From an uncultured Gemmatimonadales bacterium (GTDB lineage: Bacteria; Gemmatimonadota; Gemmatimonadetes; JACCXV01; JAHWKZ01): a DNA stretch of 64,000 bases. How positions within the stretch are numbered: position 1 is the stretch's first letter; the number at the start of each line of letters is the position of its first letter. The notes beneath the pieces were generated by a model. It was not told where the DNA came from, did not search any database, and saw only the letters and a program-made list of their open reading frames with translations. Location of the stretch: contig CAMYLR010000021.1 in NCBI GenBank assembly GCA_947259315.1, positions 19,659-83,658 of the forward strand, written 5' to 3'. The position numbers and the translations under genes were made by a program. Positions 22,121 to 63,229 of this stretch are shown piece after piece.

Positions 22121-22188
22121 GTAGGCAAAGTCCCCACAAACCATTCGGGCGACTCCCGACAGACACGCCACCACATCGTTTCTACAAT
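22121..22188 (+). promoter_or_regulatory. DosR-like promoter A (palindrome, CCCGACAGAC, TACAAT)
   Basis: GTAGGCA-AAG-TCCCCAC (22121-22137), then 17 nt, then CCCGACAGAC (22155-22164), then 18 nt, then TACAAT (22183-22188). The same three elements in the same order occur upstream of the nos operon, the response regulator and the uptake hydrogenase. It drives the DUF4136-CBS-Usp-DUF5335-ZIP operon. Nothing else is seen in 22104-22205. Confidence 0.75.
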
Positions 22189-22205
22189 GTGATGGGAGAG
22201 TGTCG

Positions 22206-22772
22206 ATGCAATTCAACTCTGTTCATATCCTTTTCTTGATCGTGATCCTTGCGGGTTGCAGCTCGATGCGCGTAGCGACGTTCGGTGATCCATCGATGTC
22301 GTTCGCCGGTTTTCAGACCTATGCGTGGAGCAACGGCCAAGCAACCGGCGGCGATGAGACGAGCAACGGCGAAGTGGTCGATCGCCGAATCCGTGAAGTG
22401 GTCGATCGTAAGATGGCGACAAAAGGGTACCGATTGGTCGCTTCGGATCACTCCGACTTGTTGATCCACTATCACGCCGCAATGGACGAGAATCTGGATG
22501 TCGCTGCCGAGTACGAACGGTACCGGCTGGGCACAGATCCCTACGGGCGAGAGACGTCCCGCGCGCAGGTCTTCAAGAAAGGCACCTTGGTCCTCGACGT
22601 GGAACAGCCCACGAGTCGACGTCTGATCTGGCGCGGCTGGGCGACCGACGCGATAAACGACGTACCGCGCACGGAGGAGATGCAGTCCAAGATAGATACC
22701 GCGGTCGACAAGATTCTCGACCGGTTCCCCGACTGTCCACGGACCGAGTTGGCCCGGGAGCGGGAGGAGTGA
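22206..22772 (+). CDS. DUF4136-family lipoprotein
   Basis: 188 residues with lipoprotein signal and lipobox LAGC (VHILFLIVILAGCSSM). The DUF4136 landmarks are FAGFQTYAWS, an I(R)xxVDxxMxxKGY block (IREVVDRKMATKGYRL) and the LLIHYHAAMD strand. It ends with TAVDKILDRFP, the usual amphipathic helix. Function unknown; members are outer-membrane-associated lipoproteins. ATG 22206 is preferred, with GGGAGAG 7-10 nt upstream. First gene of the operon behind DosR-like promoter A. Confidence 0.85.
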   Translation: MQFNSVHILFLIVILAGCSSMRVATFGDPSMSFAGFQTYAWSNGQATGGDETSNGEVVDRRIREVVDRKMATKGYRLVASDHSDLLIHYHAAMDENLDVAAEYERYRLGTDPYGRETSRAQVFKKGTLVLDVEQPTSRRLIWRGWATDAINDVPRTEEMQSKIDTAVDKILDRFPDCPRTELAREREE

Positions 22773-22777
22773 GTCAA

Positions 22778-23254
22778 ATGTCCGTACCAGTAGCCCAAGC
22801 CCATGTCAAAGACGTGATGAACGCACCGGCGGTGACCGTGCGTGGGAGAACAAGTCTCAGGGAGACTGCCCGTCTGATGCTCGATAAGGGGATCGGGTGC
22901 GTGCTCGTTGTCGATGCAGACGGCGAGCTCGAAGGCATCATCGCCGCGCGCGACTTTTGTGCCCGGGAGGTGCGGGTACCGTTCTCGACGCTCGAGTTGC
23001 CCCAGGTCTTCGGCCATTGGCTCGGCAGTGAGGGCGCCGAGCAGGCGTATGCCGAGGCGGGCTCCCTGCCCGCCAGGGACATCATGCGCAGTCCGGTTTA
23101 TTCGGTCGATGAGGACGACTCGATCGATCGCGTCCTCGAACTGATGCTCAAGCACGACATCGGGCATGTTCCGGTGCTGCGGGGCGGCCGACCGGTGGGG
23201 GTCGTTTCCGGGCGTGATCTTCTGAAACTCATGCTCGACCATATGCACGATTAG
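22778..23254 (+). CDS. two-CBS-domain protein (hypoxic-response-protein-like)
   Basis: 158 residues consisting of one CBS pair (Bateman module): VKDVMNAPAVTVRGRTSLRE for the first CBS and ARDIMRSPVYSVDEDDSID for the second, each closing with the GIIAARDF / GVVSGRDLL strand that binds adenine nucleotides. It has no attached enzyme, so it acts as a nucleotide-sensing or stress protein; mycobacterial Hrp1 in the DosR regulon is a comparable stand-alone example. ATG 22778 sits 8 nt after AGGAG; a GTG at 22769 overlapping the previous stop is the alternative. Confidence 0.9.
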   Translation: MSVPVAQAHVKDVMNAPAVTVRGRTSLRETARLMLDKGIGCVLVVDADGELEGIIAARDFCAREVRVPFSTLELPQVFGHWLGSEGAEQAYAEAGSLPARDIMRSPVYSVDEDDSIDRVLELMLKHDIGHVPVLRGGRPVGVVSGRDLLKLMLDHMHD

Positions 23255-23268
23255 GGAGGAGGCAATCC

Positions 23269-24195
23269 ATGCTCAACATCAAGAAAGTCCTGATGCCGAC
23301 GGATCTGTCGGTATGCGCTGAGCACGGAATGCGACAGGCGGTGCTGTGGTGCGAGCGATACGATGCCGAGCTTCACATCTTCCACGTCGTCGCGGATACC
23401 GAGCCAGGCTCTGTCAAAGAGAAGAAGGACCGGGCCAGGACCGCGCTGGCAGATCACATCGAGCGGTACGAACCGTTCGGCTTCAAGACCAAGCTCGAGC
23501 TCCGGTTCGGGGGTCCAGCCGCGAAGCAGATCGCCGAGTACGTAACCGAGGAGTCGATCGACCTCGTCGTCATGGGCACGCATTGCCGGACCGGGCTATC
23601 GGGGATCTTCATGGGAAGCGTGGCCGAGAACGTGGTCCGGGACGCGCCGTGTCCGGTGCTCGTCGTCCCGATGCACGAACGCGAACTGGGCGAAACACCA
23701 CCGTCCCGAATTCTCGTGCCGGTGGATTTCTCGGACTGGTCCCACAACGCCGTTGGCTACGCCAAGACGATCGCCGAAGCACACGGCGCGAAGATCTTGC
23801 TTCTGCACGTTATCGAGGACGTCGTGCTGCCGGACTTCTACCTCGCCGCCGGTAGTGCGTTGTTCCTGCAAGAGCCAGAGATACGACGCAAGTCCGAAGA
23901 GCGTCTGAAGACGCTGTTTAGCAGCGCAAGCGGACCCGATGTCCCGATGGAAGCCTACGTCATCAATGGCCGCGCCGCGCTCGACATCGCAGGATTCGCG
24001 GAAGAGAAAGACGTCGACTTCATCGTGCTCCCGACGAGTGGGCTCAGCGGGATCAACCGATTGCTCATCGGCAGCGTCGCCGAGAAAGTCGTCCGTCGGG
24101 CTGTCTGCCCGGTGTTGACGCTCAAGCCATTTGGACACCAGCTGATCGACACCGCGGCAACTCAGACAAAAACCCCGGCGGAGGTTTCATCATGA
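23269..24195 (+). CDS. tandem universal stress protein
   Basis: 308 residues with two UspA domains (about 1-145 and 150-300). Both keep the ATP-binding loop, in the first as MGTHCRTGLSGIFMGSVAE followed by NVVRDAPCPVLVV, in the second as LPTSGLSGINRLLIGSVAE followed by KVVRRAVCPVL. The second domain lacks the first glycine-histidine pair (PTSG in place of GTHG), so nucleotide binding may be restricted to the first. Tandem Usps are core members of dormancy and hypoxia regulons. Start: ATG 23269 with GGGAGGAGG upstream; the end overlaps the next gene (ATGA). Confidence 0.92.
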   Translation: MLNIKKVLMPTDLSVCAEHGMRQAVLWCERYDAELHIFHVVADTEPGSVKEKKDRARTALADHIERYEPFGFKTKLELRFGGPAAKQIAEYVTEESIDLVVMGTHCRTGLSGIFMGSVAENVVRDAPCPVLVVPMHERELGETPPSRILVPVDFSDWSHNAVGYAKTIAEAHGAKILLLHVIEDVVLPDFYLAAGSALFLQEPEIRRKSEERLKTLFSSASGPDVPMEAYVINGRAALDIAGFAEEKDVDFIVLPTSGLSGINRLLIGSVAEKVVRRAVCPVLTLKPFGHQLIDTAATQTKTPAEVSS

Positions 24196-24539
24196 CAGGC
24201 AGCGTAACGACAACGCTCGCTCGGCCACAGTGGGCCCGAGAATTAGAGCGGTTTAGCGAACGCAACGCTGGACGGACGACGATCCTGGAAGTCGATGAAG
24301 CCGACCTCGGGGCTCAAGAGGTTCTCCGCTTACAGCTGGCCGGGGTGTCGTACGATCATGCCAACGATGAAATCGAGATCATGTTTGGGGGCTTTGTCGA
24401 TCCCGGACAACACATGACCCACGTCATCCGCGGCGTGAGCGAGATCGATCGGTTGACTTCGAGCGACAGCCACGATGCGGCGCTTCGGGTAGTCACCGCG
24501 GCGGGACAGACCCTACTGCGGTTCCCAACTCAAGAATAG
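24192..24539 (+). CDS. DUF5335-family protein
   Basis: 115 residues. It opens with the family pattern (ARPQWARELERFSERNAGRT) and has GAQEVLRLQLAGVSYDHAND, IMFGG and the closing THVIRGVSEIDRL. Function unknown; members are small soluble proteins commonly encoded with stress genes. The start overlaps the Usp stop by four bases (ATGA), so it is translated with it. Confidence 0.8.
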   Translation: MTGSVTTTLARPQWARELERFSERNAGRTTILEVDEADLGAQEVLRLQLAGVSYDHANDEIEIMFGGFVDPGQHMTHVIRGVSEIDRLTSSDSHDAALRVVTAAGQTLLRFPTQE

Positions 24540-24570
24540 CCAAGCGAGCGGCCGTATATTTGGACGCCAA

Positions 24571-25314
24571 GTGTCGATCAGCGTCCTAACGGTATTCCTC
24601 TACGCACTCGCGACCGCGCTCGCGACCGGTCTCGGAGCGCTCCCGTTCGCGCTCGTACGCCAGCCCACGAGAAGCTGGCTCGGGATTTCCAACGCCATCG
24701 CCGCTGGACTGATGTTGGCAGCCAGCGCCGGTCTCTTTCGAGAGGGATTCGCCTACGGCGTGTCGCAGGTGTTGGTGGGCGCCGCTCTCGGCGTCGGGTT
24801 TATCGTGTTGACCGGCCGCTGGCTCAAGAACGATCACGGACTGAGGATCGGCAAGCTAAAGGGCGTAGACGCCCGCAAAGCGCTTCTGATCATCGGCGTC
24901 ATGACCCTCCACTCGGCGACCGAAGGCATCGGCGTAGGGGTGTCGTTCGGGGGCGGCATGGCACTGGGCATTTTCATCACCGTGGCGATCGCGGTGCACA
25001 ACATCCCCGAGGGGTTGGCGATCAGTCTGGTCCTGGTCCCGCGCGGGGAGTCGGTCTCACGGGCGGCGGCCTGGAGCGTGTTCTCGAGTCTTCCACAGCC
25101 GATCCTGGCGGTACCCGCGTTTCTGTTCGTTGCCGCGTTTGAGCCCTTCTTGCCCTACGGGCTCGGGTTTGCCGGTGGGGCGATGATCTGGATGGTCTTA
25201 GCGGAGCTCATTCCCGACGCACTCGAGGATGCGCCGATCATCTCTGTGGTCATTACCGTGCTGACGTCGATCCTGGCGATGCTCGCTTTTCAAGCCGTGC
25301 TGCGTGGGTCATAA
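24571..25314 (+). CDS. ZIP-family metal transporter
   Basis: 247 residues with eight membrane helices. Helix IV has HSATEG and helix V has HNIPEG, the binuclear metal site of ZIP transporters, and ELIPDALED continues the fold. It moves Zn2+ or related divalent metals into the cytoplasm. GTG start, 31 bp after the DUF5335 gene and so probably in the same operon. Its last 6 bases overlap the convergent nosY-like gene. Confidence 0.88.
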   Translation: MSISVLTVFLYALATALATGLGALPFALVRQPTRSWLGISNAIAAGLMLAASAGLFREGFAYGVSQVLVGAALGVGFIVLTGRWLKNDHGLRIGKLKGVDARKALLIIGVMTLHSATEGIGVGVSFGGGMALGIFITVAIAVHNIPEGLAISLVLVPRGESVSRAAAWSVFSSLPQPILAVPAFLFVAAFEPFLPYGLGFAGGAMIWMVLAELIPDALEDAPIISVVITVLTSILAMLAFQAVLRGS

Positions 25315-26121
25315 AGCTCGGGCTGAGAAAAGCTTCTTCCCGGCTAGGAGGCCTCCCACACACCAACCGACCATCGAGGCTCCAGCCAGCGCCACCACCC
25401 CGGCCTGGCCGAATCGGCCGAGCAAGGCCTGGCCAACCGCGCCGAGCGAAGTCGCATCTGGATCCATGATCGTGATCCCCGCCAGTCGATACGCCTCGAT
25501 CGGGTTGATGACCGCCCACACCTGGAGCAACGTCGGTTGCAGTCCCCATTGCACGAACGAGCTCATGATGCCCAGCGTGCCCAACCCCAGGAGAATCAGC
25601 CACACCGTCAGGCCGATACTCGTCGCGCGCGTCCGCGATCCCGTAAATGACGAGACGAGCAGGCCGATCGATACGAACGCGGCGGCGAGCAGCAACGACA
25701 GCGCCAACAAACCGAAGATCAACACGCCCGGGACACCTCGCGCCAGGGCGACCACGCCCGTGATCCCGAGTCCGATCAGCACCGAGATCAACACCGCGGT
25801 CGCGACACCCAGCCACTTGCTCGCAAACACTTGTGACGCGGTGACCGGCTGAGCCAAGATGTAGTCCAACGTTCCCGTCTCGCGCTCGCCGGAGATCGCT
25901 ACCACGGCCGGAATGATCGCCATCAGCGGGACAAAAACCAGCGCAAGGTGCATCAGGCCGGCCAGCGAGCGGGCGAAGCCCCGGTACCCCAGGACCATCA
26001 CGTCGGACTGACCGAACAACATGAGCAACAGCCCGGCGCTCGCGAACGCCACCGCGTTGACGACGAACCAGTAACGACGAATTGCGTCTCGGATCTCTCG
26101 GCGTACGAGCGGCCCGATCAT
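25309..26121 (-). CDS. nosY: ABC-2 permease NosY
   Basis: 270 residues, six membrane helices. With NosF it forms the ABC transporter needed to assemble the CuZ centre of nitrous oxide reductase, probably by exporting a sulfur species or acting with NosD. The typical ABC-2 opening (LVRREIRDAIRRYWFVVNAV), SGERETGTLDYILAQPVT and a conserved YRLAGITIM near the end match NosY. It is the last gene of the nos operon; its start overlaps nosF (ATGA). Confidence 0.88.
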   Translation of the reverse strand: MIGPLVRREIRDAIRRYWFVVNAVAFASAGLLLMLFGQSDVMVLGYRGFARSLAGLMHLALVFVPLMAIIPAVVAISGERETGTLDYILAQPVTASQVFASKWLGVATAVLISVLIGLGITGVVALARGVPGVLIFGLLALSLLLAAAFVSIGLLVSSFTGSRTRATSIGLTVWLILLGLGTLGIMSSFVQWGLQPTLLQVWAVINPIEAYRLAGITIMDPDATSLGAVGQALLGRFGQAGVVALAGASMVGWCVGGLLAGKKLFSARAL

Positions 26122-26858
26122 CGGTCGCCCGCGGGTTGATCGGCGGCCGTCAAGAAACGCTTGACGACCTGCTCCAACTCCCGCCCGCCGATGGTGCCGC
26201 GCGCGTCGGTGCCGTTGGAGTCATCCAGCGGGCCGTCAAAGACGATCCCCCCCCGATGCAGAATGATCAATCGGTCGGCGATCGACTCTGCCTCCTCCAA
26301 GCGATGCGTAGCCAGCACCATGCCGCGATCTCCATTGACGTCTGCCAAGTGCTCGATGAACTCGCGTCTGGAGCCCGGGTCGAGACCCGCCGTCGGTTCA
26401 TCCAGCAACAGCACCGCGGAGTCTGCCGCCAGCGCCAGGGCCAGATACGCCTTCTGCAGCATCCCGCCCGAGAGCTGTCGCATCGGCTTGTCCGCATAGA
26501 CGTCCAGGGCGAGCCCAAGATCCGATAGCCGCGACGCGACGCTGGCCGGATCGACATCACGGATGGCACCAAAAAGATCCAGGAATGCGCTCAGGGACAG
26601 ATCGAAGACCGGAGGCATCTGAGGGACGTACGCCAAGCGCTGCCGGACTGCGCGGCCGCTCGACTTGACGTCCAGACCGTCGATCGTGAGTCGGCCCTCG
26701 AAGCCGACCAATCCCAGCATGCACTTGAGAAGGGTCGTTTTCCCGGCGCCGTTGGAGCCCAACACGGCGACGCGCTCCCCGTCGCCGATCTCGAGATCGA
26801 TCGCCTCCAGAATTGTGTGTTTTCCGTACCGCTTGGTGAGCTGATTGGCCTGGATCAT
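26118..26858 (-). CDS. nosF: ABC transporter ATP-binding protein NosF
   Basis: 246 residues. Walker A is GSNGAGKTT, the signature LSGGMLQK, Walker B VLLLDEPTAGLD and the switch histidine ATH. MIQANQLTKRYG is the usual NosF opening. It energises NosY during maturation of the NosZ copper centre. The start overlaps nosD and the end overlaps nosY, each by four bases. Confidence 0.92.
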   Translation of the reverse strand: MIQANQLTKRYGKHTILEAIDLEIGDGERVAVLGSNGAGKTTLLKCMLGLVGFEGRLTIDGLDVKSSGRAVRQRLAYVPQMPPVFDLSLSAFLDLFGAIRDVDPASVASRLSDLGLALDVYADKPMRQLSGGMLQKAYLALALAADSAVLLLDEPTAGLDPGSRREFIEHLADVNGDRGMVLATHRLEEAESIADRLIILHRGGIVFDGPLDDSNGTDARGTIGGRELEQVVKRFLTAADQPAGDR

Positions 26859-28249
26859 CGGTCACGACCTCGATCCACGACGACCCCCCATATCAGCAGC
26901 ATCGCGCCGAGCGTCATCGCCGCTACCACCACGCTCCAGCGGCCACCAACGGCATCCTCCCTGCCGATTCCAACGGGTTGTTGTGCCATAGTCGCTCTCC
27001 ACGGATCGAGTGCCGACGCGTTCAGCCTCGGCGCACTATCCACGACCATCGGGATCGGTCGGAGCAGCGGAAAGAATCGCATCGCCCGATCGAGCATCGA
27101 CAGTGCCGGGCTTCCAGAAAAGAACCGCAGATCCGGGTGTCGACTCAGCAGTTCGTCCGAGAAACGCACGTGGGAGAACGGAGTGTCTCCTATGCCATCG
27201 CCGTCTTCGTCAAACCCGACGTACTCACTCCAGTAGTTCTGCGCCCATTGGTTCTGTGCGACCTGTTCCCGAGCTCCACCGGCGACGCCCACCGGACGAC
27301 CATTGGCAGAGAACGCGTTATCGACAAAGCGATTATTGGCGACCGCGGGTAGCAATCGAACGGCCATCCCGTTGTACGCGAACGCATTGTCCCGGAACTC
27401 GTTGGGCATGTTCGCGCTACGCGGCGAGTTGTCGAGGTGAACGCCGACCGCGTTCTTCAGTATCAGGTTGTCGCTCACCGAAACGCGATCGGCATCTTTG
27501 AGCCCAAGCCCCATACCGGTCGCTCCTCGGGCCCCAGCAAACACGTTTCCGCTCAGTTGTAGATGCGTCGAGTACATCAGAAACGCCCCCACCTGGTTAC
27601 CGGCCAACCAGTTGTCCTCGACCATGCTGTAGTTGCTGTACATATAGTGGAGACCATAGCGCCCGTCGAAAACCCGGTTGCCGCGCATCGACAAGCTGTC
27701 AGAAAAGTACACCACCAAGTCGCGGGCTTGTCGAACGTCGTTGTCGAGAACTTGAGTTCCGGCGCTGTACCAAAGACGGATACCATCTCCCCGCCGGGCC
27801 AGAGCGAGTGGCTTGCCGACAACGCGGTTACCGGCGACCAGTGACCCTGGAGCTTGTTTGACGTAGACGCCGTACAACACGTCATCCAGCTGGTTGTCGA
27901 CGATTCGGGACGGCCCGGCGCGCACCATGAGGCCCGAATCCTCACCGTCGACGTCGTCGCCCGAGCTCCGGATGACAAAACCTGAGATCGAGATCGGCGC
28001 CAGCGCCTCGATCACGTGGCCGTGGCCGCCGCCATCGATGATCGGCCACGCTTCGCCGATCAGGACGACCGGGCGATCGATGACGAGCCGCTCTCGGTAA
28101 TTGCCGGGGGCGACGGTGATCGTGTCGCCGGAACTGGCAACCGCGAGAGCCTCGTTGATCGTGGAAAAGGGAGCTTGGGGTCCGACGCGCAACTCTTGGC
28201 TGGCCGGTAGAAGAGTCGGCCATAGGAGCAACAACAGCAGCGTCCGCAT
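26855..28249 (-). CDS. nosD: periplasmic copper-centre assembly protein NosD
   Basis: 464 residues: a signal peptide (MRTLLLLLLWPTLLPAS) followed by a parallel beta-helix of CASH repeats (DNQLDDVLYGVYVKQAPGS, MRGNRVFDGRYGLHYMYSN, GNVFAGARGATGMGLGLK). It ends in QNYWSEYVGFDEDGDGIGD, a strongly conserved NosD block, and has a C-terminal membrane anchor (VVAAMTLGAMLLIWGVVV). It works with NosFY to assemble CuZ. ATG 28249 is preferred to TTG 28264 because GAGGA lies 8 nt before it. Confidence 0.92.
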   Translation of the reverse strand: MRTLLLLLLWPTLLPASQELRVGPQAPFSTINEALAVASSGDTITVAPGNYRERLVIDRPVVLIGEAWPIIDGGGHGHVIEALAPISISGFVIRSSGDDVDGEDSGLMVRAGPSRIVDNQLDDVLYGVYVKQAPGSLVAGNRVVGKPLALARRGDGIRLWYSAGTQVLDNDVRQARDLVVYFSDSLSMRGNRVFDGRYGLHYMYSNYSMVEDNWLAGNQVGAFLMYSTHLQLSGNVFAGARGATGMGLGLKDADRVSVSDNLILKNAVGVHLDNSPRSANMPNEFRDNAFAYNGMAVRLLPAVANNRFVDNAFSANGRPVGVAGGAREQVAQNQWAQNYWSEYVGFDEDGDGIGDTPFSHVRFSDELLSRHPDLRFFSGSPALSMLDRAMRFFPLLRPIPMVVDSAPRLNASALDPWRATMAQQPVGIGREDAVGGRWSVVVAAMTLGAMLLIWGVVVDRGRDR

Positions 28250-28260
28250 GGAAGCGATCC

Positions 28261-28863
28261 TCAACTCGCCGCGCGTCGCCGCCGTACTAGCTCGTAGATC
28301 AATATGATCGGTCCCAGCGCTCCGGCGAGCAGCATGATCATCCCACCGGCAGCCGGGTAACTGGTGACCTCAAACTGCCCGATGCTCGTGACACCGAGGA
28401 ACTTTGGCGTGAACGGATCGATCGTGAGCGGTGCCCCGGAGGCGAGTCCCTGACCAAACCGTGTCAGCCAGGTCTGAAAATCGAACATCATCACCGCGCC
28501 AAACACCGAGAAGTCGATGTAACCGATGGCAGCGATCGGCATCCGCCCGACCAGCGCGGCCAGAACCGCGAAACCTAGAAACCGGAGAATGAAGAACGGG
28601 ATAAAGATGAACTCGCGAAACTCGTCCGGCTCGATCTCCGCCATCCCGATGTAGTGATTCAGGATGTTGATCTCCTGAAGGTCACCGGCCAGTTCGTGCG
28701 AGTAGATCTTGAGCTCCAAGCCCTGCGGGTACTGCGGAGCATTGAGCCCGATGTTCCATACCGGCAGAAAGAGACACGGAATCAGCGCCAGCGCCACCAC
28801 CAACAGAGCCACGCGGCTGGCCCGTGAGATGTCGCCCCGGAAAAACTCCGTTATGTCTGTCAA
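28261..28863 (-). CDS. NosB-like integral membrane protein of the clade II nos cluster
   Basis: 200 residues with four membrane helices: LLVVALALIPCLFLPVW, FIPFFILRFLGFAVLAALVG, a third around GYIDFSVFGAVMMFD, and GGMIMLLAGALGPIILIYELV. The first loop has NAPQYPQGLELKIYS and NILNHYIGM, a pattern I associate with the membrane protein between nosZ and nosD in clade II clusters (nosB). Its role is unknown. Both ends overlap neighbours by four bases, so it is translationally coupled to the CBS gene and close to nosD. Confidence 0.65.
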   Translation of the reverse strand: MTDITEFFRGDISRASRVALLVVALALIPCLFLPVWNIGLNAPQYPQGLELKIYSHELAGDLQEINILNHYIGMAEIEPDEFREFIFIPFFILRFLGFAVLAALVGRMPIAAIGYIDFSVFGAVMMFDFQTWLTRFGQGLASGAPLTIDPFTPKFLGVTSIGQFEVTSYPAAGGMIMLLAGALGPIILIYELVRRRRAAS

Positions 28864-55767: not shown

Positions 55768-58074
55768 CTACGCTCCTCGCTCACGCCGTAAGAGTTCCGC
55801 CGCGACCGCCGCCTGCCCGTAGCTTATCGCCCCATCGTTAGGGCTCAGCTGGCAGGGCACCAACACCCGCCGCCCGACCGACTCGAGCCGCTCCCGCACC
55901 GACGAAAGCAACCGATCGTTCTGGAAGCACCCGCCGCTGAGCGCTACCGCATCGCATCCGTGACTCTCGCACACGTGGGATGCGAGGTCCGCGCTGGCCG
56001 CAGCCACGCTCTCGTGGAAGCGCGCCGCCAGCGTTCGGACATCGTCCCCGGCCGCCCTGCGCTCTCCCAGCGCGACCAGGAGCGGCAGCGGATCGAGCTC
56101 CAACAAACCGCCTTCGGTGTCGCGGGCTGGAAACACCAACGGCTCGACGCGCTCGCTACCCGCCAGCGCCTCGAGCTCCATCGCCGCCTGTCCCTCGTAG
56201 TGCGCCACGCGACGAACACCCAGCACCGCAGCCGCCGCGTCAAAGAGTCTACCCAACGACGACGCGAGCGGCGCGTTGAGCGATCGCTCGATCTGCTTTT
56301 GGGCCGTCTTCCGCTCTCGCTCCGGCACGTCTTCGAACGCGCGTGCGAACGCTTCCGCCGCAGTCGGCTCCAGCCAGAGGTACCCGAGGGCGACCCGCCA
56401 CGGCCGCCGAATCGCCAGATCGCCGCCTGGGAGCGGTGCGTACCGCAACCGTCCGACCCGTTGGTAGCCGGCCAAGTCGGCGACCAAGACCTCGGCGCCC
56501 CACACGTTTCCGTCGTCGCCGTACCCGGTTCCGTCGAACGACAACCCGACGACCGGCTCCGTCACGCCGTGCTCGGCCGCGACCGCGGCGACGTGCGCGT
56601 GGTGGTGTTGGACCGCGATCACTCGCTCGAACCCGAATTCTTCGGCGACCTGCGTCGACATGTAACCGGGGTGGAGATCGCGAACCGCGATCTCGGGCTC
56701 CACCCTGAAGAGCTTTCGGTACCGCTCGAGCGTCAGCTCGAAGTGATCGAGCGTCTCCAGGTTCTCCATATCGCCGATGTGCTGGCTCACGTAAACGTTG
56801 CGATCACTGGCCAGGGCGAACGTATTCTTGAGGTGTGGTCCGACTGCGACGATCGGCACCGGCGCATCGAACGGCAGCAAGACCGGCAGCGGCGCGTACC
56901 CGCGCGCGCGGCGTAGGAAGACGGGCGTCTCGTCGACGACCCGTACGACGGAGTCGTCGTAGCGCGAAACGATCTCGCGATCGTGCAGAAGAAATGCGTC
57001 GGCGATGCCGGCCAACCGCTGACGCGCCTCGTCATTGCCGGTCGCGATCGGCTCTTCGCTGACGTTTCCACTCGTCATGACGAGGGGGCGGCGCACGCCG
57101 TCCAGCACGAGGTGGTGGAGCGGAGTGTAGGCGGTCATAACACCGATAGTATCGAGCCCGGGCGAAACCGATGGCGCGATTGGCGAGTTGCCGCGCTCAT
57201 GCAAGAGCACGATCGGGCGCTCGCTCGATCCGAGCAAACGCTCCTCCTCGGGTCCAACAGCTCCGAGCGCCCGGGCGTCGTCGATCGTCCGCACCATCAG
57301 CGCCAACGGCTTCGCCTCGCGCGCCTTGCGTCGCCGGAGGCGCTGGACCGCCTCGTCGTCGGTCGCGTCGACCGCCAAGTGGAAGCCGCCGAGGCCGCGG
57401 AGCGCCACGATCCGACCGCTTCTAAGCGCGTCAGCGGTGGCCTCGATCGCATCTTCCCCATCCAACCGGTCGCCCTCGGCGGTCTCGAACCAGATCCGCG
57501 GTCCGCAGTCGGGACAGCTGTTTGTCTCCGAGTGGTAGCGGCGATCGTTTGGGGTGCTGTACTCGCGGAGACACTCCTCGCACTGCTGGAAGGCGCGCAT
57601 GCTCGTCCGCTCCCGGTCGTACGGCATCTCCTCGATGACCGTATACCGTGGTCCGCAGTCGGTGCACGTGATGAACGGGTACCGATAGCGGCGATCGGCG
57701 GTGTCGAAGAACTCCGCCGCGCACGCATCGCACATCGCGACGTCGGGAGAGATCGGCAGGCTGCCGCGCGGCTCGGTGTCACTCGCCTTGACCTCGAACT
57801 CGGTGACGTGGCTGGGATCGATCGCGTGTTCCTCAAGCGAGTCGATCCGCGCTAGCGGCGGCGCCTCGGTGACGAGGGCATCTCGGAAAGCGGCGATCTC
57901 ACCGGCGGGTCCCTCGACCTCGATCCGCACCTCGCCGGCCTCGTTTCGCACCCAGCCGCCGAGGCCATGGCGCATCGCCAGCCGATGCACAAACGGGCGA
58001 AACCCGACCCCCTGCACCACACCGACGAGGTGCAGCTGGACCGCCTTTTGCCCGTCCCGGGTGTTGGTGCTCAC
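55768..58074 (-). CDS. hypF: carbamoyltransferase HypF
   Basis: 768 residues, full-length. The N-terminal acylphosphatase-like domain (HLVGVVQGVGFRPFVHRLA) precedes two zinc fingers (CDACAAEFF with CTDCG, CEECLREYS with CPDCG), a YrdC-like domain (ALRGLGGFHLAVDATD, ARQRLAG) and a Kae1-like C-terminal half (QHHHAHVAAVAAEHG, GLSFDGTGYGDDG, LSGGCFQN). It makes the thiocarbamate precursor of cyanide from carbamoyl phosphate. The start codon (GTG) overlaps the hypB stop. Confidence 0.96.
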   Translation of the reverse strand: MSTNTRDGQKAVQLHLVGVVQGVGFRPFVHRLAMRHGLGGWVRNEAGEVRIEVEGPAGEIAAFRDALVTEAPPLARIDSLEEHAIDPSHVTEFEVKASDTEPRGSLPISPDVAMCDACAAEFFDTADRRYRYPFITCTDCGPRYTVIEEMPYDRERTSMRAFQQCEECLREYSTPNDRRYHSETNSCPDCGPRIWFETAEGDRLDGEDAIEATADALRSGRIVALRGLGGFHLAVDATDDEAVQRLRRRKAREAKPLALMVRTIDDARALGAVGPEEERLLGSSERPIVLLHERGNSPIAPSVSPGLDTIGVMTAYTPLHHLVLDGVRRPLVMTSGNVSEEPIATGNDEARQRLAGIADAFLLHDREIVSRYDDSVVRVVDETPVFLRRARGYAPLPVLLPFDAPVPIVAVGPHLKNTFALASDRNVYVSQHIGDMENLETLDHFELTLERYRKLFRVEPEIAVRDLHPGYMSTQVAEEFGFERVIAVQHHHAHVAAVAAEHGVTEPVVGLSFDGTGYGDDGNVWGAEVLVADLAGYQRVGRLRYAPLPGGDLAIRRPWRVALGYLWLEPTAAEAFARAFEDVPERERKTAQKQIERSLNAPLASSLGRLFDAAAAVLGVRRVAHYEGQAAMELEALAGSERVEPLVFPARDTEGGLLELDPLPLLVALGERRAAGDDVRTLAARFHESVAAASADLASHVCESHGCDAVALSGGCFQNDRLLSSVRERLESVGRRVLVPCQLSPNDGAISYGQAAVAAELLRRERGA

Positions 58075-58730
58075 CCCTTAACCGTAGAACGAAGGAAGTC
58101 GCACCACTCGTCGACCCCCTCGCCCGTCAACGCCGAGGTGTGAAAGAAGCGGATCTCCGGGTTCACCTCCTTGGCCATCGCGATCGCGCGATCGACATCG
58201 AACGTCACGTGTGGTAGGAGGTCGATCTTGTTGAGCACTGCATAACGAGAGCGGCGGAACATCTGCGGGTACTTGGCTGGCTTGTCCTCACCCTCGGTCA
58301 CCGAGAAGATCACGACCTTCGCCGCTTCGCCCAGGTCAAAGCCCGCCGGACACACGAGGTTCCCGACGTTTTCGATCAGTATGAGATCGGTCAGGGCGAG
58401 GTCGATTCGAGCCAGCGCCGCTTCAACCTGTCGAGCGTCGAGGTGGCAGCCGCCACCGGTCACGACCGCCTGCACGAGTTTCTCGGTGTGGTTCGCCAAC
58501 CGCTCAGCGTCGTTCTCGGTCTGAACGTCACCGGCGATGACCGCGATTTCGAGCTCGCCACCGAGCCTCTCCAGCGTGCGCTCGAGCAACAACGTCTTAC
58601 CGGATCCGGGCGACGACACGAGGTTGTACGCGACCACCCCGTCAGCAGCGAGACGATCGCGAATCCCGGCCGCGATCGCCTCGTTCCGCTTGAGAACTCG
58701 CTCCTCGATCTCGACCCGCCGAACCGTCAT
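58071..58730 (-). CDS. hypB: hydrogenase nickel incorporation GTPase HypB
   Basis: 219 residues. SIMIBI-class GTPase with P-loop VSSPGSGKT, DVQTENDAERL, the switch region GGGCHLDARQV, LILIENVGNLVCPAGFDLG and guanine-specificity NKIDLL. The N-terminal CxxCGC and His-rich nickel-storage segments of some homologues are absent, so Ni delivery depends on HypA and the permease. ATG 58730 overlaps the hypA stop (ATGA). Confidence 0.95.
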   Translation of the reverse strand: MTVRRVEIEERVLKRNEAIAAGIRDRLAADGVVAYNLVSSPGSGKTLLLERTLERLGGELEIAVIAGDVQTENDAERLANHTEKLVQAVVTGGGCHLDARQVEAALARIDLALTDLILIENVGNLVCPAGFDLGEAAKVVIFSVTEGEDKPAKYPQMFRRSRYAVLNKIDLLPHVTFDVDRAIAMAKEVNPEIRFFHTSALTGEGVDEWCDFLRSTVKG

Positions 58731-58972
58731 TCGTCCAGCTCCAGATACGTCATTCGCAAGACATCCCCCGGCAACTGCTCGACGATCGGCTTGGCTCGCC
58801 CAAACGGTGGGTTCGACAGGAGCGCCTCCAGGCAAAACTCGAGGTTGTCGACCTCGACCCCGGCGTCGCAGCCGACATCCAAGCCGACCTCGATGACGTT
58901 CGCCAGCCGGTCTCGCCCGACATGCGCTTCCGCCATCCGGCACACTTCCACCGCGATGCTCATCTCATGCAT
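58727..58972 (-). CDS. hypA: HypA-like nickel chaperone lacking the zinc ribbon
   Basis: 81 residues against about 113 in canonical HypA. The N-terminal nickel-binding start MHEMSIAVEV is intact and LEFCLEAL matches the core helix. The C-terminal strand is also present (LPGDVLRMTYLELDE). The whole zinc ribbon with its two CxxC pairs is missing between PIVEQL and PGDVL: a clean internal deletion without frameshift. It probably still hands nickel to HypB, but zinc-structured docking is lost. Overlaps the protease gene (8 bp) and hypB (4 bp). Confidence 0.82.
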   Translation of the reverse strand: MHEMSIAVEVCRMAEAHVGRDRLANVIEVGLDVGCDAGVEVDNLEFCLEALLSNPPFGRAKPIVEQLPGDVLRMTYLELDE

Positions 58973-59471
58973 CGTGCACGACCTCGCGACTCTCGTGTCC
59001 CCACGACTCGATCCGTTCGACGACCCGTTGCAGAAGCTCTGGGAGCGCTTGCGTGACGACCGGGCTCAACTCGACAGACATCTCTACGCGGCCGGGCTGG
59101 AGGCCGATCGCCACCGTGTCATCCGGCAATTTGCCACGAAGCTCGGCCAGCGCGAGAACCTCGCGCAGATCGATCTGGTGAGGAGAGATCTTGGTGCTGA
59201 AGAACCGGGGCAGCTCGTCACGCTCGAGCACGACGACGCTACCCGGGTCCGCGCCGACATCGATCGCGTCAAGCAGGATGACGCGTTTGGCAACCTCGAT
59301 GAACGGCAGCAGGTTCATCCCCCACGTGCCACCGTCCAGCATTTCCACATGGGGCTCGAAGGTCCACCCCTCGCGCAGCGATTCGAGCGCCGCCACACCG
59401 ATCCCATCGTCCCCCATCAGGGGGCTACCGACCCCGATTACGACCGTTTCGTCCGCGGCCCCGTCATACAT
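58965..59471 (-). CDS. hydrogenase maturation endopeptidase (HyaD/HupD family)
   Basis: 168 residues. It cleaves the C-terminal tail of the large subunit after nickel insertion. Landmarks: VVIGVGSPLMGDDGIGVAAL (first Asp/Glu nickel-sensing site), EMLDGGTWGMNLLPFIE and ILLDAIDVGADPGSV, then SPHQIDLREVLALAEL with the third ligand His. Start ATG 59471 overlaps the cytochrome b gene by 8 bp, end overlaps hypA by 8 bp. Confidence 0.92.
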   Translation of the reverse strand: MYDGAADETVVIGVGSPLMGDDGIGVAALESLREGWTFEPHVEMLDGGTWGMNLLPFIEVAKRVILLDAIDVGADPGSVVVLERDELPRFFSTKISPHQIDLREVLALAELRGKLPDDTVAIGLQPGRVEMSVELSPVVTQALPELLQRVVERIESWGHESREVVHDA

Positions 59472-60207
59472 CCTCGAACGGTACGTCCTCACGTACGAAC
59501 CGCCCACCGCTGACGATCGAGGACACGCGCGCCTCCCGGTGCACGAGATCGGCCCTCAAGCTCATGTAGACGTGGACCGGGATGAAAATCATAAAGAACC
59601 ACGTGTTCACGTGGTGGATGAACCGCACCAGCTGGAGCCCGCCCATCATCGGCGCGACCCACCCGAACATCGTCGCAAAGAACCCCCCGGGGTTCGCGAG
59701 ACCGTACAGCGTAAACCCAGTGACGACCTGAATGACGACGACTAGGTACACGAACGTGAACAAGAACTGCTGCAACGGGTTGTGCCCCAAGTAATGGGGC
59801 GCCTCGAGCGGGCGGACGAAAGCGTACTTGAGCAAGATCTGGTACGCGTGCACCCAGTCCTGCCGATGGACCGGGAACAGCGCTCTCCACCGCTCGTACC
59901 GGTTCCCGACGAAGAGCCAGTAGACCCGCACGATGCCCGTCGCGACCAGGAGCCCCGCCGCCGCGAAGTGGATCATCCGCGCCCACCCCATTAAGTAGTG
60001 GGCGCTCGGCTCTCCGGCGGTCATGAAGTACGGCTTGCCGATGTAGAGGCCGCTTGCCGCCAGAAGCACAATGCAGCCGGCCGCCCACCAGTGCATCGCC
60101 CGGATCGGCCAGTGCCACACGTACACCCACCGGTACCCAGGTTTGACCCCCAGTTGGGGCTGTGATGTAGTTCGCTCGAATACGCGCAGACGACTCCCGG
60201 GTGTCAT
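59464..60207 (-). CDS. Ni/Fe-hydrogenase b-type cytochrome subunit
   Basis: 247 residues with four helices and haem histidines in VWHWPIRAMHWWAAGCI, MIHFAAAGLLVATG and FIHHVNTWFFMIFIPVHVY. It anchors the periplasmic hydrogenase dimer and passes electrons to quinone (HyaC/HupC role). ATG 60207 overlaps the large-subunit stop (ATGA). The order small-large-cytochrome-protease is the usual group 1 layout. Confidence 0.93.
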   Translation of the reverse strand: MTPGSRLRVFERTTSQPQLGVKPGYRWVYVWHWPIRAMHWWAAGCIVLLAASGLYIGKPYFMTAGEPSAHYLMGWARMIHFAAAGLLVATGIVRVYWLFVGNRYERWRALFPVHRQDWVHAYQILLKYAFVRPLEAPHYLGHNPLQQFLFTFVYLVVVIQVVTGFTLYGLANPGGFFATMFGWVAPMMGGLQLVRFIHHVNTWFFMIFIPVHVYMSLRADLVHREARVSSIVSGGRFVREDVPFEDV

Positions 60208-61919
60208 TGGACCTTCACCTCCGTCACCAGATCGCCCTTGGCATCCAGCACGTGGACCCCACACGCCATGCAGGGATCAAACGAGTGGATCGTCCGCAGG
60301 ATCTCGATCGGTCGTTCCGGGTCGACCAGCGGGTGGTTGTCCACGAGCGCCGCTTCGTAGGGCCCCATCTGACCCTGCGGGTCTCGCGGCGAGCAGTTCC
60401 ACGTGCTCGGCACGACACACTGATAGCGGCTGATCTTCCCGTCCTGGATCTGGATCCAGTGACCGAGCGCACCGCGCGCTGCGTCGAGGTACCCGTACCC
60501 CTGCGCGGTCGAAGGCCACGTCTCCGGATCCCACTTGTCGGTGTTGAACGTCGCCACGTCGCCGGTGCGGATCCGCCCGACAAGCTCGTCGTACCACTCC
60601 TCGAGCTTCATCGCCAAGAGCCGCGTCTCGACCCCGCGTGCCGCCGTCCGTCCGAGCGTGGAGAACAGCGCCCCGGCACCGACATTTAGCCGTCCGAGCG
60701 CTTCGGTGATCACTTCGCGCGCATCGTCGTGACCCGAAGCGAATGCGACCAGCATCCGCGACAGCGGTCCGACCTCCATCGGCATCTCGTCGTAGCGTGG
60801 CGACTTCATCCACGAGTACTTGTCGTGATCCTGGAGGTACTCCCAAGGCGGCGCGGGGCCGGTGTACTTCGCTTTCGTCTCGCCCTCCCACGGGTGGAGA
60901 CCCGCGTCGTCGCCGACCGAGTACTCGTACCACGAGCTCGTCACGTACTCCGCGACCTTCTCGTGATCGTACGGCAATACTTCGTTGAGGTTCTTGTCGA
61001 CGATGATCCCGCGCGGGAAGTAGAGCGAGTCGTAGTCCTTGGCGTCTCCGGCCGGAAACTCGCCCACCGCGAGGTAGTTACCGGTACCGCCGCCGATCGC
61101 CGCCCAATCTTTGTAGAACGACGCGACCGCCAGCAGATCCGGCCAGTACACCTGCTCGACGAACCGCCGCGCGCGGCGGATCATGTCGTGAATGTCGGTC
61201 AACCGCTCGGCGTTGATCGTCGCCGTGTCCGACAAGTTGATCGCTGACGCCATGCCGCCCACGAGGAAGTTCGGGTGCGGGTTCTTGCCGCCGAAGATCG
61301 TGTGCAAGCGGATCACGTCGCGCTGCCAGTCGAGCGCTTCGAGGTAGTGAGCTACCGCCATCAGGTTCGCCTCCGGCGGCAGGTTGTACGCCGGATGACC
61401 CCAGTAGCCGTTGGTAAAGATCCCCAGTTGACCGGAGGAAACGAACTTCGCCAGGCGATCCTTGATCTCCTGGAAGTACGTGTCCGAGTTGTTGGGCCAC
61501 GGCGAAAGCTGTTTCGCGAGCGCCGATGTCGCCGCGGGATCGGCGTCGAGCGCACTTACGACATCCACCCAATCGAGCGCGTGCAGGTGGTAGAAGTGGA
61601 TGACGTGGTCCTGCACCGTTTGCATGCCGTGGATCAGGTTGCGGATGATCGTCCCGTTGCGCGGCACCTCGATGTCGAGCGCGTCCTCCACCGCCCGGCA
61701 CGAGGCGATCGCGTGCACGACCGTGCAAACGCCGCAGATCCGCTGGGTGAACGCCCATGCGTCGCGCGGGTCGCGGCCCTGCATGATCAGCTCGATCCCC
61801 CGAAACTGTGTCGAGGACGCCCACGCGTCGGCGATCCGGCCGTCCTCGGCCTGGACCTCGATGCGAAGGTGGCCTTCGATCCGGGTGATCGGATCGACAA
61901 CTACTTTAGTTCTGGCCAT
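60204..61919 (-). CDS. group 1 [NiFe] hydrogenase large subunit
   Basis: 571 residues carrying the catalytic Ni-Fe site. L1 motif RICGVCTVVHAIAS and L2 motif SFDPCMACGVHVL provide the four nickel-ligating cysteines (all Cys, no Sec). A 14-residue tail after the L2 histidine (VLDAKGDLVTEVKVQ) is the peptide removed by the adjacent protease. H2 uptake is the expected direction for group 1 enzymes. ATG 61919 overlaps the small-subunit gene by 14 bp. Confidence 0.96.
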   Translation of the reverse strand: MARTKVVVDPITRIEGHLRIEVQAEDGRIADAWASSTQFRGIELIMQGRDPRDAWAFTQRICGVCTVVHAIASCRAVEDALDIEVPRNGTIIRNLIHGMQTVQDHVIHFYHLHALDWVDVVSALDADPAATSALAKQLSPWPNNSDTYFQEIKDRLAKFVSSGQLGIFTNGYWGHPAYNLPPEANLMAVAHYLEALDWQRDVIRLHTIFGGKNPHPNFLVGGMASAINLSDTATINAERLTDIHDMIRRARRFVEQVYWPDLLAVASFYKDWAAIGGGTGNYLAVGEFPAGDAKDYDSLYFPRGIIVDKNLNEVLPYDHEKVAEYVTSSWYEYSVGDDAGLHPWEGETKAKYTGPAPPWEYLQDHDKYSWMKSPRYDEMPMEVGPLSRMLVAFASGHDDAREVITEALGRLNVGAGALFSTLGRTAARGVETRLLAMKLEEWYDELVGRIRTGDVATFNTDKWDPETWPSTAQGYGYLDAARGALGHWIQIQDGKISRYQCVVPSTWNCSPRDPQGQMGPYEAALVDNHPLVDPERPIEILRTIHSFDPCMACGVHVLDAKGDLVTEVKVQ

Positions 61920-63084
61920 CGTCGCCCTCCTCGTTCGGCAGTTCATCTTCCTCACCCGGCGGTATCACGTCGATCCGCGAGTACTCCCCGCGATGTCGCA
62001 TTCTCGCCCGGTGAACCCCAGTCGCTACCGCGTGCGCCGCAACGCCCGCCGTCGCGCCGGCCGCGAGCGCGAAGCCGATCGTATCGGCCGTGCTTTCGAC
62101 GCCGAAGCCGGCGACTTCTGGCAATCTGTCATAGAACGGTGTGTACCGATCCCAGAAATCCCTCTCGGTGCACCCGATACACGGGTGACCCGCACCGATC
62201 GGCCAGTTCGTGCGCGTATTCCACTGGAAGATCGGGCACGGCGAGAAGCACGCTGGTCCCTTGCACCCCACCTTGTAGAGGCACCAACCCCGACGCGCCG
62301 AGTCGTCGTCAAACTCTTCGACGAACTGACCGGCGTCGAAGTGTGCCCGGCGGGGGCACTGATCGTGGATCCGCGCACCGTATGCAAACAGCGGACGGCC
62401 GTCCGCGTCCAGATCGGGCACGCGACCGAACGTCAAGTAGTGAACCAGGGTCGCGGTCACGACGTCCGCGATCGGTGGGCAACCGGCGATGTTGACGACC
62501 GGCTTGTCAAAGACGATCTGCGAGACGCCAACCGCCCCGGTCGGATTCGGATTCGACGCCTGGATGTTGCCCCAATGGGCGCAGGCACCGATCGCGATCA
62601 CTGCGGCCGCTCCTTCGGCCGCCTCCTCGAGGACCTCCTTCGCGGTGCGGCCCCCGATCGTCGTGTAGATCCCATCCTCGTTGAGCGGGACGGACCCGGT
62701 CACGAGCAGCAGGTACTGCCCGTCGTTCTCCTCCATCGCCTGGTGGAGCGCTGATTCAGCGGCGCTACCAGCGGCCGCCATCAACGTGTGGTTGTAGTCG
62801 AGGGAAATCAGGTCGAGCACGAGGTCGCCGATGGTGGGCTCCGCGGTGCGGATCACACTCTCGACGCAGCCGGTGCACTCTTGAAGCTGAAGCCAGATCA
62901 CGCTCGGTCGTCGTGTCTGCTCCAGCGCCTTGACGATCTGTGGCGTGAGCGTCGAGCCCAGCCCCAGTATGACCGCCATCTCGCCGCAAAAGGCGAGGAA
63001 ATCGCGCCGACTGACCCCGCTGCCCGCTAGGTGCTCGCCGAGAGACTGATCCTCGGTCCACGGAAGCGAGGACGGGAAAATCAT
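61906..63084 (-). CDS. group 1 [NiFe] hydrogenase small subunit (Tat-exported)
   Basis: 392 residues. Twin-arginine signal SRRDFLAFCGEMAVILGLG. Proximal [4Fe-4S] ligands in QECTGCVES, GACAHWG and GCPP; distal and medial clusters in HDQCPRRAHF, GWCLYKVGCKGPAC, FSPCPIFQWN and HPCIGC. The extra proximal cysteines of O2-tolerant group 1d (ECTCC) are absent (ECTGC). A C-terminal helix (IGFALAAGATAGVAAHAVA) anchors it to the membrane. ATG 63084 has GGAGGT upstream. First gene of the operon, behind promoter D. Confidence 0.95.
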   Translation of the reverse strand: MIFPSSLPWTEDQSLGEHLAGSGVSRRDFLAFCGEMAVILGLGSTLTPQIVKALEQTRRPSVIWLQLQECTGCVESVIRTAEPTIGDLVLDLISLDYNHTLMAAAGSAAESALHQAMEENDGQYLLLVTGSVPLNEDGIYTTIGGRTAKEVLEEAAEGAAAVIAIGACAHWGNIQASNPNPTGAVGVSQIVFDKPVVNIAGCPPIADVVTATLVHYLTFGRVPDLDADGRPLFAYGARIHDQCPRRAHFDAGQFVEEFDDDSARRGWCLYKVGCKGPACFSPCPIFQWNTRTNWPIGAGHPCIGCTERDFWDRYTPFYDRLPEVAGFGVESTADTIGFALAAGATAGVAAHAVATGVHRARMRHRGEYSRIDVIPPGEEDELPNEEGDDGQN

Positions 63085-63159
63085 GGCGTTACCTCCGGTG
63101 AGGGTCGTCCGGGGCATCGCCGTGCCCCGAGGACACATCTATGCGAGGATATTTCATCT

Positions 63160-63229
63160 ATCGTAGGGCGTTCCCCGACCCCTCGTCTGTCGGGAATAAC
63201 CAGTATAGGCGTGGGGGGAATTTCCTCCT
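63160..63229 (-). promoter_or_regulatory. DosR-like promoter D of the uptake hydrogenase operon
   Basis: Minus strand: AGGAGGA-AAT-TCCCCCC (63229-63213), 18 nt, CCCGACAGAC (63194-63185), 19 nt, TACGAT (63165-63160). Transcription would start near 63153, leaving a leader of about 70 nt with the small-subunit Shine-Dalgarno. The rest of 63085-63437 contains only this promoter and the Rex-like one on the other strand. Confidence 0.75.

What the first reader, a model, noticed from the sequence alone, without database searches (positions are those of the whole stretch)
22121..63229. Four promoters share a DosR-like operator/promoter architecture: an unrecognised low-oxygen regulon
Promoters A (22121-22188), B (31741-31832), C (32494-32561) and D (63160-63229) carry, in the direction of transcription: a palindrome near GTGGGGA-N3-TCCCCAC; CCCGACAGAC, identical at all four sites; and a TACGAT-like -10 (TACAAT, TACGAT, TAGCAT, TACGAT). 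Spacing from CCCGACAGAC to the -10 is 18, 18, 18 and 19 nt; from palindrome to CCCGACAGAC 17 nt (A, C) or 18 nt (D, and the weaker copy at B). The targets are a CBS/universal-stress operon, nitrous oxide reductase, a NarL-type regulator and an uptake [NiFe] hydrogenase. Mycobacterial DosR also controls Usp and CBS proteins through a GGGAC-type palindrome (established knowledge). That the regulator at 31839 binds these sites is inference.
Basis: partly seen in the sequence, partly recalled or inferred. Interest (0 to 1): 0.92.

Follow-up and report, generated by a model that had tools for sequence, protein, structure and literature searches.

The report
Gemmatimonadota low-oxygen promoter code and regulator
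In a group of little-studied soil and sediment bacteria, genes for consuming nitrous oxide, burning hydrogen, taking up ferrous iron and surviving stress share one very specific promoter pattern, found almost only in species that also carry one particular sensor-regulator pair, so this looks like an undescribed low-oxygen control system.

Summary
A scoring matrix trained only on other genomes picks exactly sites A, D, C and B as the four best places in the 64 kb window (41, 39, 36, 27 bits; next best 7; best of 20 random 64-kb sequences 13). The host is a Gemmatimonadota MAG. The module is TCCCCAC-N17/18-CCCGACAGAC-N18/19-TANNNT. With up to 3 mismatches it gives 174 hits against 5 control hits in the 16 genomes carrying both the NarL-type regulator and the neighbouring PAS kinase, 15 against 5 in 6 genomes with the regulator alone, and 43 against 20 in 79 others. 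Targets recur across genera: NosZ with cytochrome c, [NiFe] hydrogenase, FeoB, Usp/CBS/DUF5335, the regulator itself. The kinase PAS is closest to haem PAS of FixL, its proximal histidine invariant. I conclude that this is a real, undescribed two-component regulon, probably sensing O2 or another haem ligand, acting through a distal site plus a second site overlapping the -35. It works like DosR but is not DosR: operator, sensor domain and RR subfamily differ. DNA binding and signal are inferred. Correction: the ancestral regulator copy (RR2) is broken here; the 31839 gene is its diverged paralogue.

The parts
22121..22137 (+). Site A distal operator GTAGGCA-AAG-TCCCCAC (upstream half imperfect)
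   Evidence: sequence; exact TCCCCAC-N17-10mer-N18-TANNAT; matrix score 41.3
22155..22164 (+). Site A proximal element CCCGACAGAC, overlapping the -35 position
22183..22188 (+). Site A -10, TACAAT, 18 nt after the 10-mer
22200..25314 (+). Operon A: DUF4136 lipoprotein (ATG probably 22206), CBS pair, tandem Usp, DUF5335, ZIP transporter
   Evidence: Pfam
31816..31832 (-). Site B far-upstream palindrome GTGGGGA-AAC-TCCCCGC, just after the stop codon of the regulator gene
   Evidence: sequence; 23 nt from the next half-site
31793..31799 (-). Site B weak distal half-site TCTCCAC, 18 nt from the 10-mer
31765..31774 (-). Site B proximal element CCCGACAGAC
   Evidence: 27.2 bits
31741..31746 (-). Site B -10, TACGAT; cytochrome c start codon at 31730
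25309..31730 (-). Operon B: cytochrome c (31245-31730), Sec-dependent (clade II) NosZ (29302-31299), CBS protein (28860-29285), unassigned (28261-28863), NosD (26855-28264), ABC ATPase and permease
   Evidence: Pfam; NCBIfam TIGR04246 873.8 bits
32545..32561 (-). Site C distal operator GTGCGGA-CTT-TCCCCAC
   Evidence: 36.1 bits
32518..32527 (-). Site C proximal element CCCGACAGAC
32494..32499 (-). Site C -10, TAGCAT; ATG of the regulator follows after 7 nt (leaderless or nearly so)
31839..32486 (-). RR1 (P0001), NarL/LuxR-type response regulator, downstream of site C; recognition helix SPKTVDTYRSRVM
   Evidence: Pfam
32580..33201 (-). RR2, orthologue of the relatives' regulator (64-77% identical over its C-terminal part) but with a frame-breaking loss of roughly 40 nt in the receiver domain
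33176..34363 (-). Histidine kinase P0002: FixL-type PAS + HisKA_3 + HATPase_c; proximal haem-ligand His conserved. True start probably downstream of 34363
   Evidence: Pfam; PDB; orthologue alignment
63213..63229 (-). Site D distal operator AGGAGGA-AAT-TCCCCCC (degenerate)
   Evidence: 38.7 bits
63185..63194 (-). Site D proximal element CCCGACAGAC
63160..63165 (-). Site D -10, TACGAT, 19 nt after the 10-mer
53311..63138 (-). Operon D: [NiFe] hydrogenase small (61906-63138) and large (60204-61955) subunits, cytochrome b, HycI protease, cobW/HypB-type protein, HypF, HypD, AIRS-domain (HypE-like) protein
   Evidence: Pfam; NCBIfam

Best explanation
A-D are promoters of one regulon controlled by a two-component system encoded next to site C. 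The kinase (33176-34363), through a FixL-type haem PAS, senses falling O2 (or another haem ligand or redox state) and phosphorylates a NarL-family regulator (RR1, 31839-32486; ancestrally also RR2). The phosphorylated regulator binds as dimers to tandem sites about 23-24 nt apart: a distal site GTGGGGA-N3-TCCCCAC centred near -66, and a proximal site CCCGACAGAC near -43 overlapping the -35. From there it recruits RNA polymerase to a TA(G/C)NNT -10 placed exactly 18 (19) nt downstream. It switches on N2O reductase with its cytochrome c, H2 uptake, FeoB, cytochromes and Usp/CBS stress proteins, and amplifies itself through site C. Shown here by computation: the promoter module, its conservation, its targets, its co-occurrence with the regulator, and the haem-PAS homology. 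Inferred: phosphotransfer, DNA binding, activation rather than repression, and oxygen as the signal.
For: A matrix built from 50 sites of other genomes returns A, D, C and B as the only strong hits in the window (27-41 bits against a null maximum of 13). Of 99 hits (<=2 mismatches) to the first two boxes, 57 have a TANNNT 16-21 nt downstream, all at exactly 18 (47) or 19 (10) nt; background rate 0.8%. Exact motif in 14 of 22 genomes with a close regulator and 0 of 79 others (p = 6e-12). The full module gives 174 hits vs 5 control in the 16 genomes with PAS kinase and regulator, against 15 vs 5 and 43 vs 20 elsewhere. The 22 genomes share the recognition helix TYR[SA]R[IV]M; the next-closest regulators have TYKQR or GYIAR. 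Kinase and regulator are adjacent in most relatives that have both. Haem PAS: best PDB matches are FixL (E = 8e-17) then DosP (E = 3e-10); the proximal His is present in all PAS-bearing orthologues. Targets recur: hydrogenase (G000, G027, G030, G060), FeoB (G000, G001, G027; near-identical promoter sequence in G051 and G090), cytochrome c-NosZ (G000, G063, G085, G100), Usp, hemerythrin, TonB, CBS, DUF5335.
Against: No experiment. The co-occurring HAMP-type kinase and RR2 could be the real partners. The FixL distal arginine (R220) is replaced by Leu/Met/Ile, so the preferred haem ligand is uncertain. Some targets (peptidases, efflux protein, K+ transporter, fasciclin) are not obviously anaerobic. 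In two f5 genomes the exact site precedes a lipoprotein-like gene of unknown role. No site lies within the 12.6 kb held around the orthologous pair of isolate Ww583 (L037). Genomes are related and unevenly sampled, so p-values overstate independence.
Confidence: 0.72

Rival explanations
1. CCCGACAGAC-N18-TANNNT is the promoter of an alternative sigma factor; the NarL-type regulator binds only the upstream box or none.
For: The spacing between the 10-mer and the -10 is rigid (18/19), as expected for -35/-10 recognition; one target in G004 is itself a sigma-70-type factor.
Against: That sigma factor has no close orthologue across the motif-positive genomes; most other genomes return only generic RpoD/RpoS-like hits and three motif-positive ones (G030, G073, G090) none at the cut-off. 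The 10-mer is a variant of the operator half-site (TCCCCACA/TCCCGACA). The 10-mer with a -10 is almost absent from genomes lacking the regulator (5 hits in 79 genomes, one of them in congener G001).
Confidence: 0.12
2. The regulon is real and run by this two-component family, but the signal is not low oxygen: NO, CO, redox/quinone state or sulfide.
For: The haem pocket lacks the FixL arginine. An NreBC pair in Bacillus licheniformis belongs to a sulfide/sulfane-sulfur-responsive cluster (PMC9918477, abstract only). Hemerythrin, NosZ and cytochrome targets would also fit NO.
Against: Hydrogenase, FeoB and Usp targets fit low oxygen best; FixL with a replaced Arg220 still aligns as haem PAS (1y28 is the top hit).
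Confidence: 0.25
3. Another transcription factor (CRP/FNR or unidentified) binds the boxes and the regulator is merely one of its targets.
For: The regulator promoter (site C) carries the module; binding was not tested.
Against: Motif presence follows the regulator across several families and even its recognition-helix sequence. The site is unlike CRP/FNR half-sites (established knowledge). Tandem GC-rich dyads suit NarL-family dimers.
Confidence: 0.12
4. Chance or repeat-derived similarity of four GC-rich promoters.
For: The 10-mer alone with one mismatch is at chance frequency in the window.
Against: Independent matrix, controls near zero in other genomes, exact spacing to the -10, spacers between boxes not conserved among sites.
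Confidence: 0.01

Closest known systems
DosR/DevR-DosS/DosT dormancy regulon of mycobacteria
   Same: NarL-subfamily regulator with a haem-sensor kinase; tandem closely packed sites with the start-proximal one overlapping the -35 (PMC3029386); autoregulation; Usp/CBS-type targets (the last from general knowledge)
   Different: Operator GTGGGGA-N3-TCCCCAC with rigid CCCGACAGAC box instead of GGGACT-type Dev box (none in window); FixL-type PAS instead of two GAF domains; targets are NosZ, uptake hydrogenase, FeoB; regulator closer to VraR/NarL than DevR in PDB search
NreBC oxygen-sensing system of staphylococci
   Same: PAS kinase plus NarL-family regulator binding a GC-rich palindromic region upstream of anaerobic respiration genes (PMC8139620)
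   Different: NreB uses an O2-labile [4Fe-4S] cluster; here a FixL/DosP-type PAS with conserved haem-ligand His; different targets
FixL-FixJ of rhizobia
   Same: The PAS domain: best PDB match E = 8e-17, proximal His aligned
   Different: FixL Arg220 replaced by Leu/Met/Ile; kinase core is HisKA_3 (DesK/NarX type); NCBIfam FixL 72 bits against a cut-off of 850; FixJ model 89 bits against 255
NarL at the E. coli ogt promoter
   Same: NarL-family activator at two sites, -44.5 and -77.5, also functional from -67.5 (PMC7419079); predicted centres here about -43 and -66
   Different: Nitrate signal, NarX sensor, different site sequence

Membership tests
DosR (DevR) regulon | NarL-subfamily two-domain response regulator | tested here: met
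   Response_reg + GerE in P0001
DosR (DevR) regulon | Regulator orthologous to DosR | tested here: inconclusive
   DevR is only the 7th-ranked PDB sequence (96.8 bits) after VraR/LiaR, NarL, DesR and others, which argues against; no tree was built
DosR (DevR) regulon | Dev box GGGACTTNNAGTCCC-type operator | tested here: not met
   0 matches to the 20-mer with 3 mismatches, none at the sites for the 14-mer with 2
DosR (DevR) regulon | DosS/DosT sensor: two GAF domains, haem in GAF-A | tested here: not met
   P0002 has one PAS, no GAF; GAF architecture from PMC4082495
DosR (DevR) regulon | Tandem sites, proximal one overlapping the -35 | tested here: met
   Sequence level only: 10-mer 18/19 nt from the -10, second box 23-24 nt upstream; rule from PMC3029386
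DosR (DevR) regulon | Induction by hypoxia, binding of phosphorylated regulator | not testable with these tools
   needs experiment
FixL-type haem PAS sensors | PAS sequence of the FixL group | tested here: met
   best seven PDB sequences are FixL, then DosP follows
FixL-type haem PAS sensors | Proximal haem-ligand histidine | tested here: met
   aligned with FixL His200; present in every PAS-bearing orthologue
FixL-type haem PAS sensors | Distal arginine (FixL R220) | tested here: not met
   Leu/Met/Ile in all but one orthologue
FixL-type haem PAS sensors | Haem and O2 binding | not testable with these tools
   needs purified protein
NreBC | Cysteine-ligated [4Fe-4S] PAS | tested here: not met
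   no Cys in the P0002 PAS region
Named NCBIfam response-regulator equivalogs | Score above the curated cut-off | tested here: not met
   best 192.6 bits (UvrY/SirA/GacA) against 280

The most novel reading that the evidence does not exclude
A previously undescribed global oxygen regulon of Gemmatimonadota: a FixL-type haem PAS on a NarX/DesK-type kinase, paired with a NarL-family regulator that reads its own three-part promoter code (distal dyad, CCCGACAGAC at -35, -10 at fixed distance). It would put N2O consumption, H2 oxidation, Fe(II) uptake and dormancy-type stress proteins under one switch that is neither FNR nor DosR.
Probability: 0.55. Interest if true: 0.75.

Novelty: new variant of a known kind. 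Interest (0 to 1): 0.64.

Why it matters
Gemmatimonadota are soil N2O consumers with clade II NosZ, but nothing in the open literature searched here says what decides when they express it. The pattern gives a concrete sequence rule that predicts which genes in these mostly uncultured genomes belong to the same response, ties N2O respiration to H2 oxidation and ferrous iron uptake under one regulator, and offers a second, separately built example of the tandem-site NarL-family promoter logic known from DosR.

Tried and rejected
Chance similarity: rejected by the matrix trained without own-genome sites and by the reversed-pattern controls. DosR box in the window: absent. Variant operators around the more distant regulators of family f7 (TYKQR helix): only one convincing related site, shared by two genomes of one genus, left open. 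Named isolate Ww583: orthologous kinase and regulator present, no site within the 12.6 kb held. Gene calls in relatives were made by simple ORF rules, so single targets can be wrong; the first attempt to judge whether sites lie inside coding sequence was too crude and is not used. Structure prediction and fold search were not used: sequence already gave the FixL match.
Full report
OBSERVATION. CCCGACAGAC occurs exactly four times in the window, at 22155 (+), 31774 (-), 32527 (-) and 63194 (-). The -10-like hexamers follow at 18, 18, 18 and 19 nt. The 10-mer by itself with one mismatch is no more frequent than in shuffles; the information is in the combination. In the 2.4 Mb genome the 10-mer plus a TANNNT at 17-20 nt occurs 6 times, 4 of them in this window, with 1 for the reversed control. 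The exact form TCCCCAC-N17-CCCGACAGAC-N18-TANNAT occurs twice, with 0 expected.

INDEPENDENT TEST. I collected hits of TCCCCAC-N17/18-CCCGACAGAC (up to 2 mismatches) from relatives and looked downstream. Of 99 distinct sites (four of them the window's own), 57 have TANNNT within 16-21 nt, and every one is at exactly 18 (47) or 19 (10) nt; the same test at random positions gives 0.8%. A matrix trained on 50 of these, leaving out every site of this genome, ranks A (41.3), D (38.7), C (36.1) and B (27.2) as the four best places in the window; the fifth scores 7.3 and the best of 20 random 64-kb sequences 13.2. Some training sites are probably orthologous promoters, but the matrix uses only the boxes, not the spacers, which differ.

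ANATOMY. Over the 57 sites the downstream half-site TCCCCAC and the 10-mer are strongly conserved (mostly 81-100% per position), the upstream half GTGGGGA is weak (46-68% G at its G positions), and the -10 is CTA(G/C)NNT. The 10-mer resembles the half-site (TCCCCACA / TCCCGACA) and lies 23-24 nt below it. B carries three such elements, the furthest being a good palindrome at 31816-31832, stepping 23 and 24 nt. If transcription starts 6-7 nt after the -10, the centres fall near -66 and -43, the second overlapping the -35. That is the arrangement described for DevR targets (close packing, proximal site overlapping the -35; PMC3029386) and close to NarL at ogt (-44.5 with -77.5 or -67.5; PMC7419079). 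At C the start codon follows the -10 after 7 nt, so the regulator mRNA is probably leaderless.

WHO CARRIES IT. The host is a Gemmatimonadota MAG (best named relative Gemmatimonadetes bacterium Ww583). In 101 genomes of the class, the exact TCCCCAC-N17/18-CCCGACAG gives 28 hits and 0 control hits, all in 14 genomes. All 14 belong to the 22 genomes with the closest regulator orthologues (52-100% identity); 0 of 79 others have one (Fisher p = 6e-12). The cut at 22 was set by score after seeing the data, but it coincides with a sequence break: all 22 have the recognition helix S.K[TS]VDTYR[SA]R[IV]M, while the next ones have TYKQR or GYIAR. With the full module and up to 3 mismatches there are 174 hits against 5 control hits in the 16 genomes that also have the PAS kinase, 15 against 5 in 6 genomes with the regulator but no PAS-bearing kinase match, and 43 against 20 in the 79 others, 5 of them in the incomplete congener G001. 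Overlapping matches of one site at N18 and N19 are counted separately there. Motif-positive and -negative genera occur within the same families, which argues against simple relatedness, though the p-values ignore phylogeny.

TARGETS. Own genome: A (lipoprotein-CBS-Usp-DUF5335-ZIP), B (cytochrome c-NosZ-CBS-NosD-ABC), C (regulator), D ([NiFe] hydrogenase and maturation), FeoB (G000:C28), aminopeptidase P (C4), S15 peptidase (C1), cytochrome c-TPR gene (C31), multihaem cytochrome (C20), and weaker sites before a DPP-IV-type peptidase (C11) and a methyltransferase (C23). The FeoB, C31 and C1 sites recur in congener G001 with changed spacers. Relatives: hydrogenase small subunit in G027, G030 and G060; FeoB in G027, with near-identical promoter sequence in G051 and G090; cytochrome c followed by NosZ in G063, G085 and G100; Usp-type proteins in G002, G004 and G049; DUF5335 and CBS in G004; hemerythrin in G002/G004; TonB in G027/G030; flavodoxin in G060; a haem-synthesis-like radical SAM protein in G085; HAMP-type kinases next to the regulator in G002 and G004, with further sites at that position in G073, G085 and G088. 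Not all are anaerobic genes: efflux protein, K+ transporter, fasciclin and peptidases also appear.

REGULATOR AND SENSOR. P0001 is a NarL/LuxR-type regulator; closest PDB sequences are LiaR/VraR, NarL and DesR before DevR, and it reaches no NCBIfam equivalog cut-off. The kinase P0002 is PAS + HisKA_3 + HATPase_c. Its PAS matches the FixL haem PAS best (E = 8e-17), then DosP. The histidine aligned with the FixL haem ligand is invariant in all PAS-bearing orthologues, within VP-x6-H and RPMGxG, while the FixL Arg220 position is Leu, Met or Ile (Arg in one). A haem sensor is therefore likely, its preferred ligand open. Kinase and regulator are neighbours in most relatives, often beside a divergent HAMP-type kinase. 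In the window there are two regulators below the kinase. RR2 (32580-33201) is 64-77% identical to orthologues over its C-terminal part but has lost about 40 nt in the receiver domain with a frame break; RR1 (31839-32486, 57-64%) is intact and is the gene with site C. Either the ancestral copy died after duplication, or the assembly is wrong there; both share the recognition helix.

MECHANISM. Most likely: haem-PAS kinase inactive with O2 bound, active when O2 falls; phosphorylated regulator binds distal and proximal sites cooperatively and recruits RNA polymerase to a promoter whose -35 is replaced by the proximal site; positive autoregulation through C. Shown: module, spacing, conservation, targets, co-occurrence, haem-PAS homology. 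Inferred: binding, phosphotransfer, direction of control, signal.

COMPARISON. It works like DosR but fails DosR membership: operator absent, GAF sensor absent, and the regulator ranks DevR below other NarL-family members. It is not NreBC (no cysteines in the PAS) and not FixLJ (kinase core and regulator differ). Searches of open papers returned no description of such a regulon in Gemmatimonadota; subscription papers were not covered.

Noticed in passing
window 32580-33201 (-): RR2, the copy most like the orthologous regulators, has a frame-breaking loss of about 40 nt between HASTG and VVVMDL of the receiver domain; its DNA-binding part is intact.
   Followed up: partly
G000:C24:146200-146259 and 150078-150137 (loci L125, L104): Two module-like sites 3.9 kb apart with identical spacer ACAAACAAACGAGTACA and a weaker second box CCCACAGAC, before two different secreted-protein genes; looks like a duplicated promoter.
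   Followed up: no
L332 (G044:C7:127041-127099) and L333 (G050:C5:188479-188537): In family f7, near a regulator with helix TYKQR, a related element TTCCCGCAGGGAATTTCC...CCCGACAGAT-N19-TAGCTT is present: possibly a co-evolved operator variant.
   Followed up: no
L245 9019-9690, L246 9539-10174, L266 6203-6889, L307 2608-3207 and similar: A second, PAS-less HAMP-type kinase with a similar kinase core lies beside the kinase-regulator pair in many relatives, its promoter often carrying the module; possible second input.
   Followed up: partly
window 28860-29285 (-): A CBS-domain protein gene sits inside the nos cluster directly after nosZ, in addition to the CBS gene of operon A.
   Followed up: no
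G000:C4:138235, C1:23200, C11:3785: Three module sites of this genome precede peptidase genes (aminopeptidase P, S15, DPP-IV type), an unexpected target class for a low-oxygen regulon.
   Followed up: partly
L245 13680-14390 (+): In G004 the module precedes a sigma-70-type factor gene without close orthologues in most motif-positive genomes, suggesting a lineage-specific cascade.
   Followed up: yes
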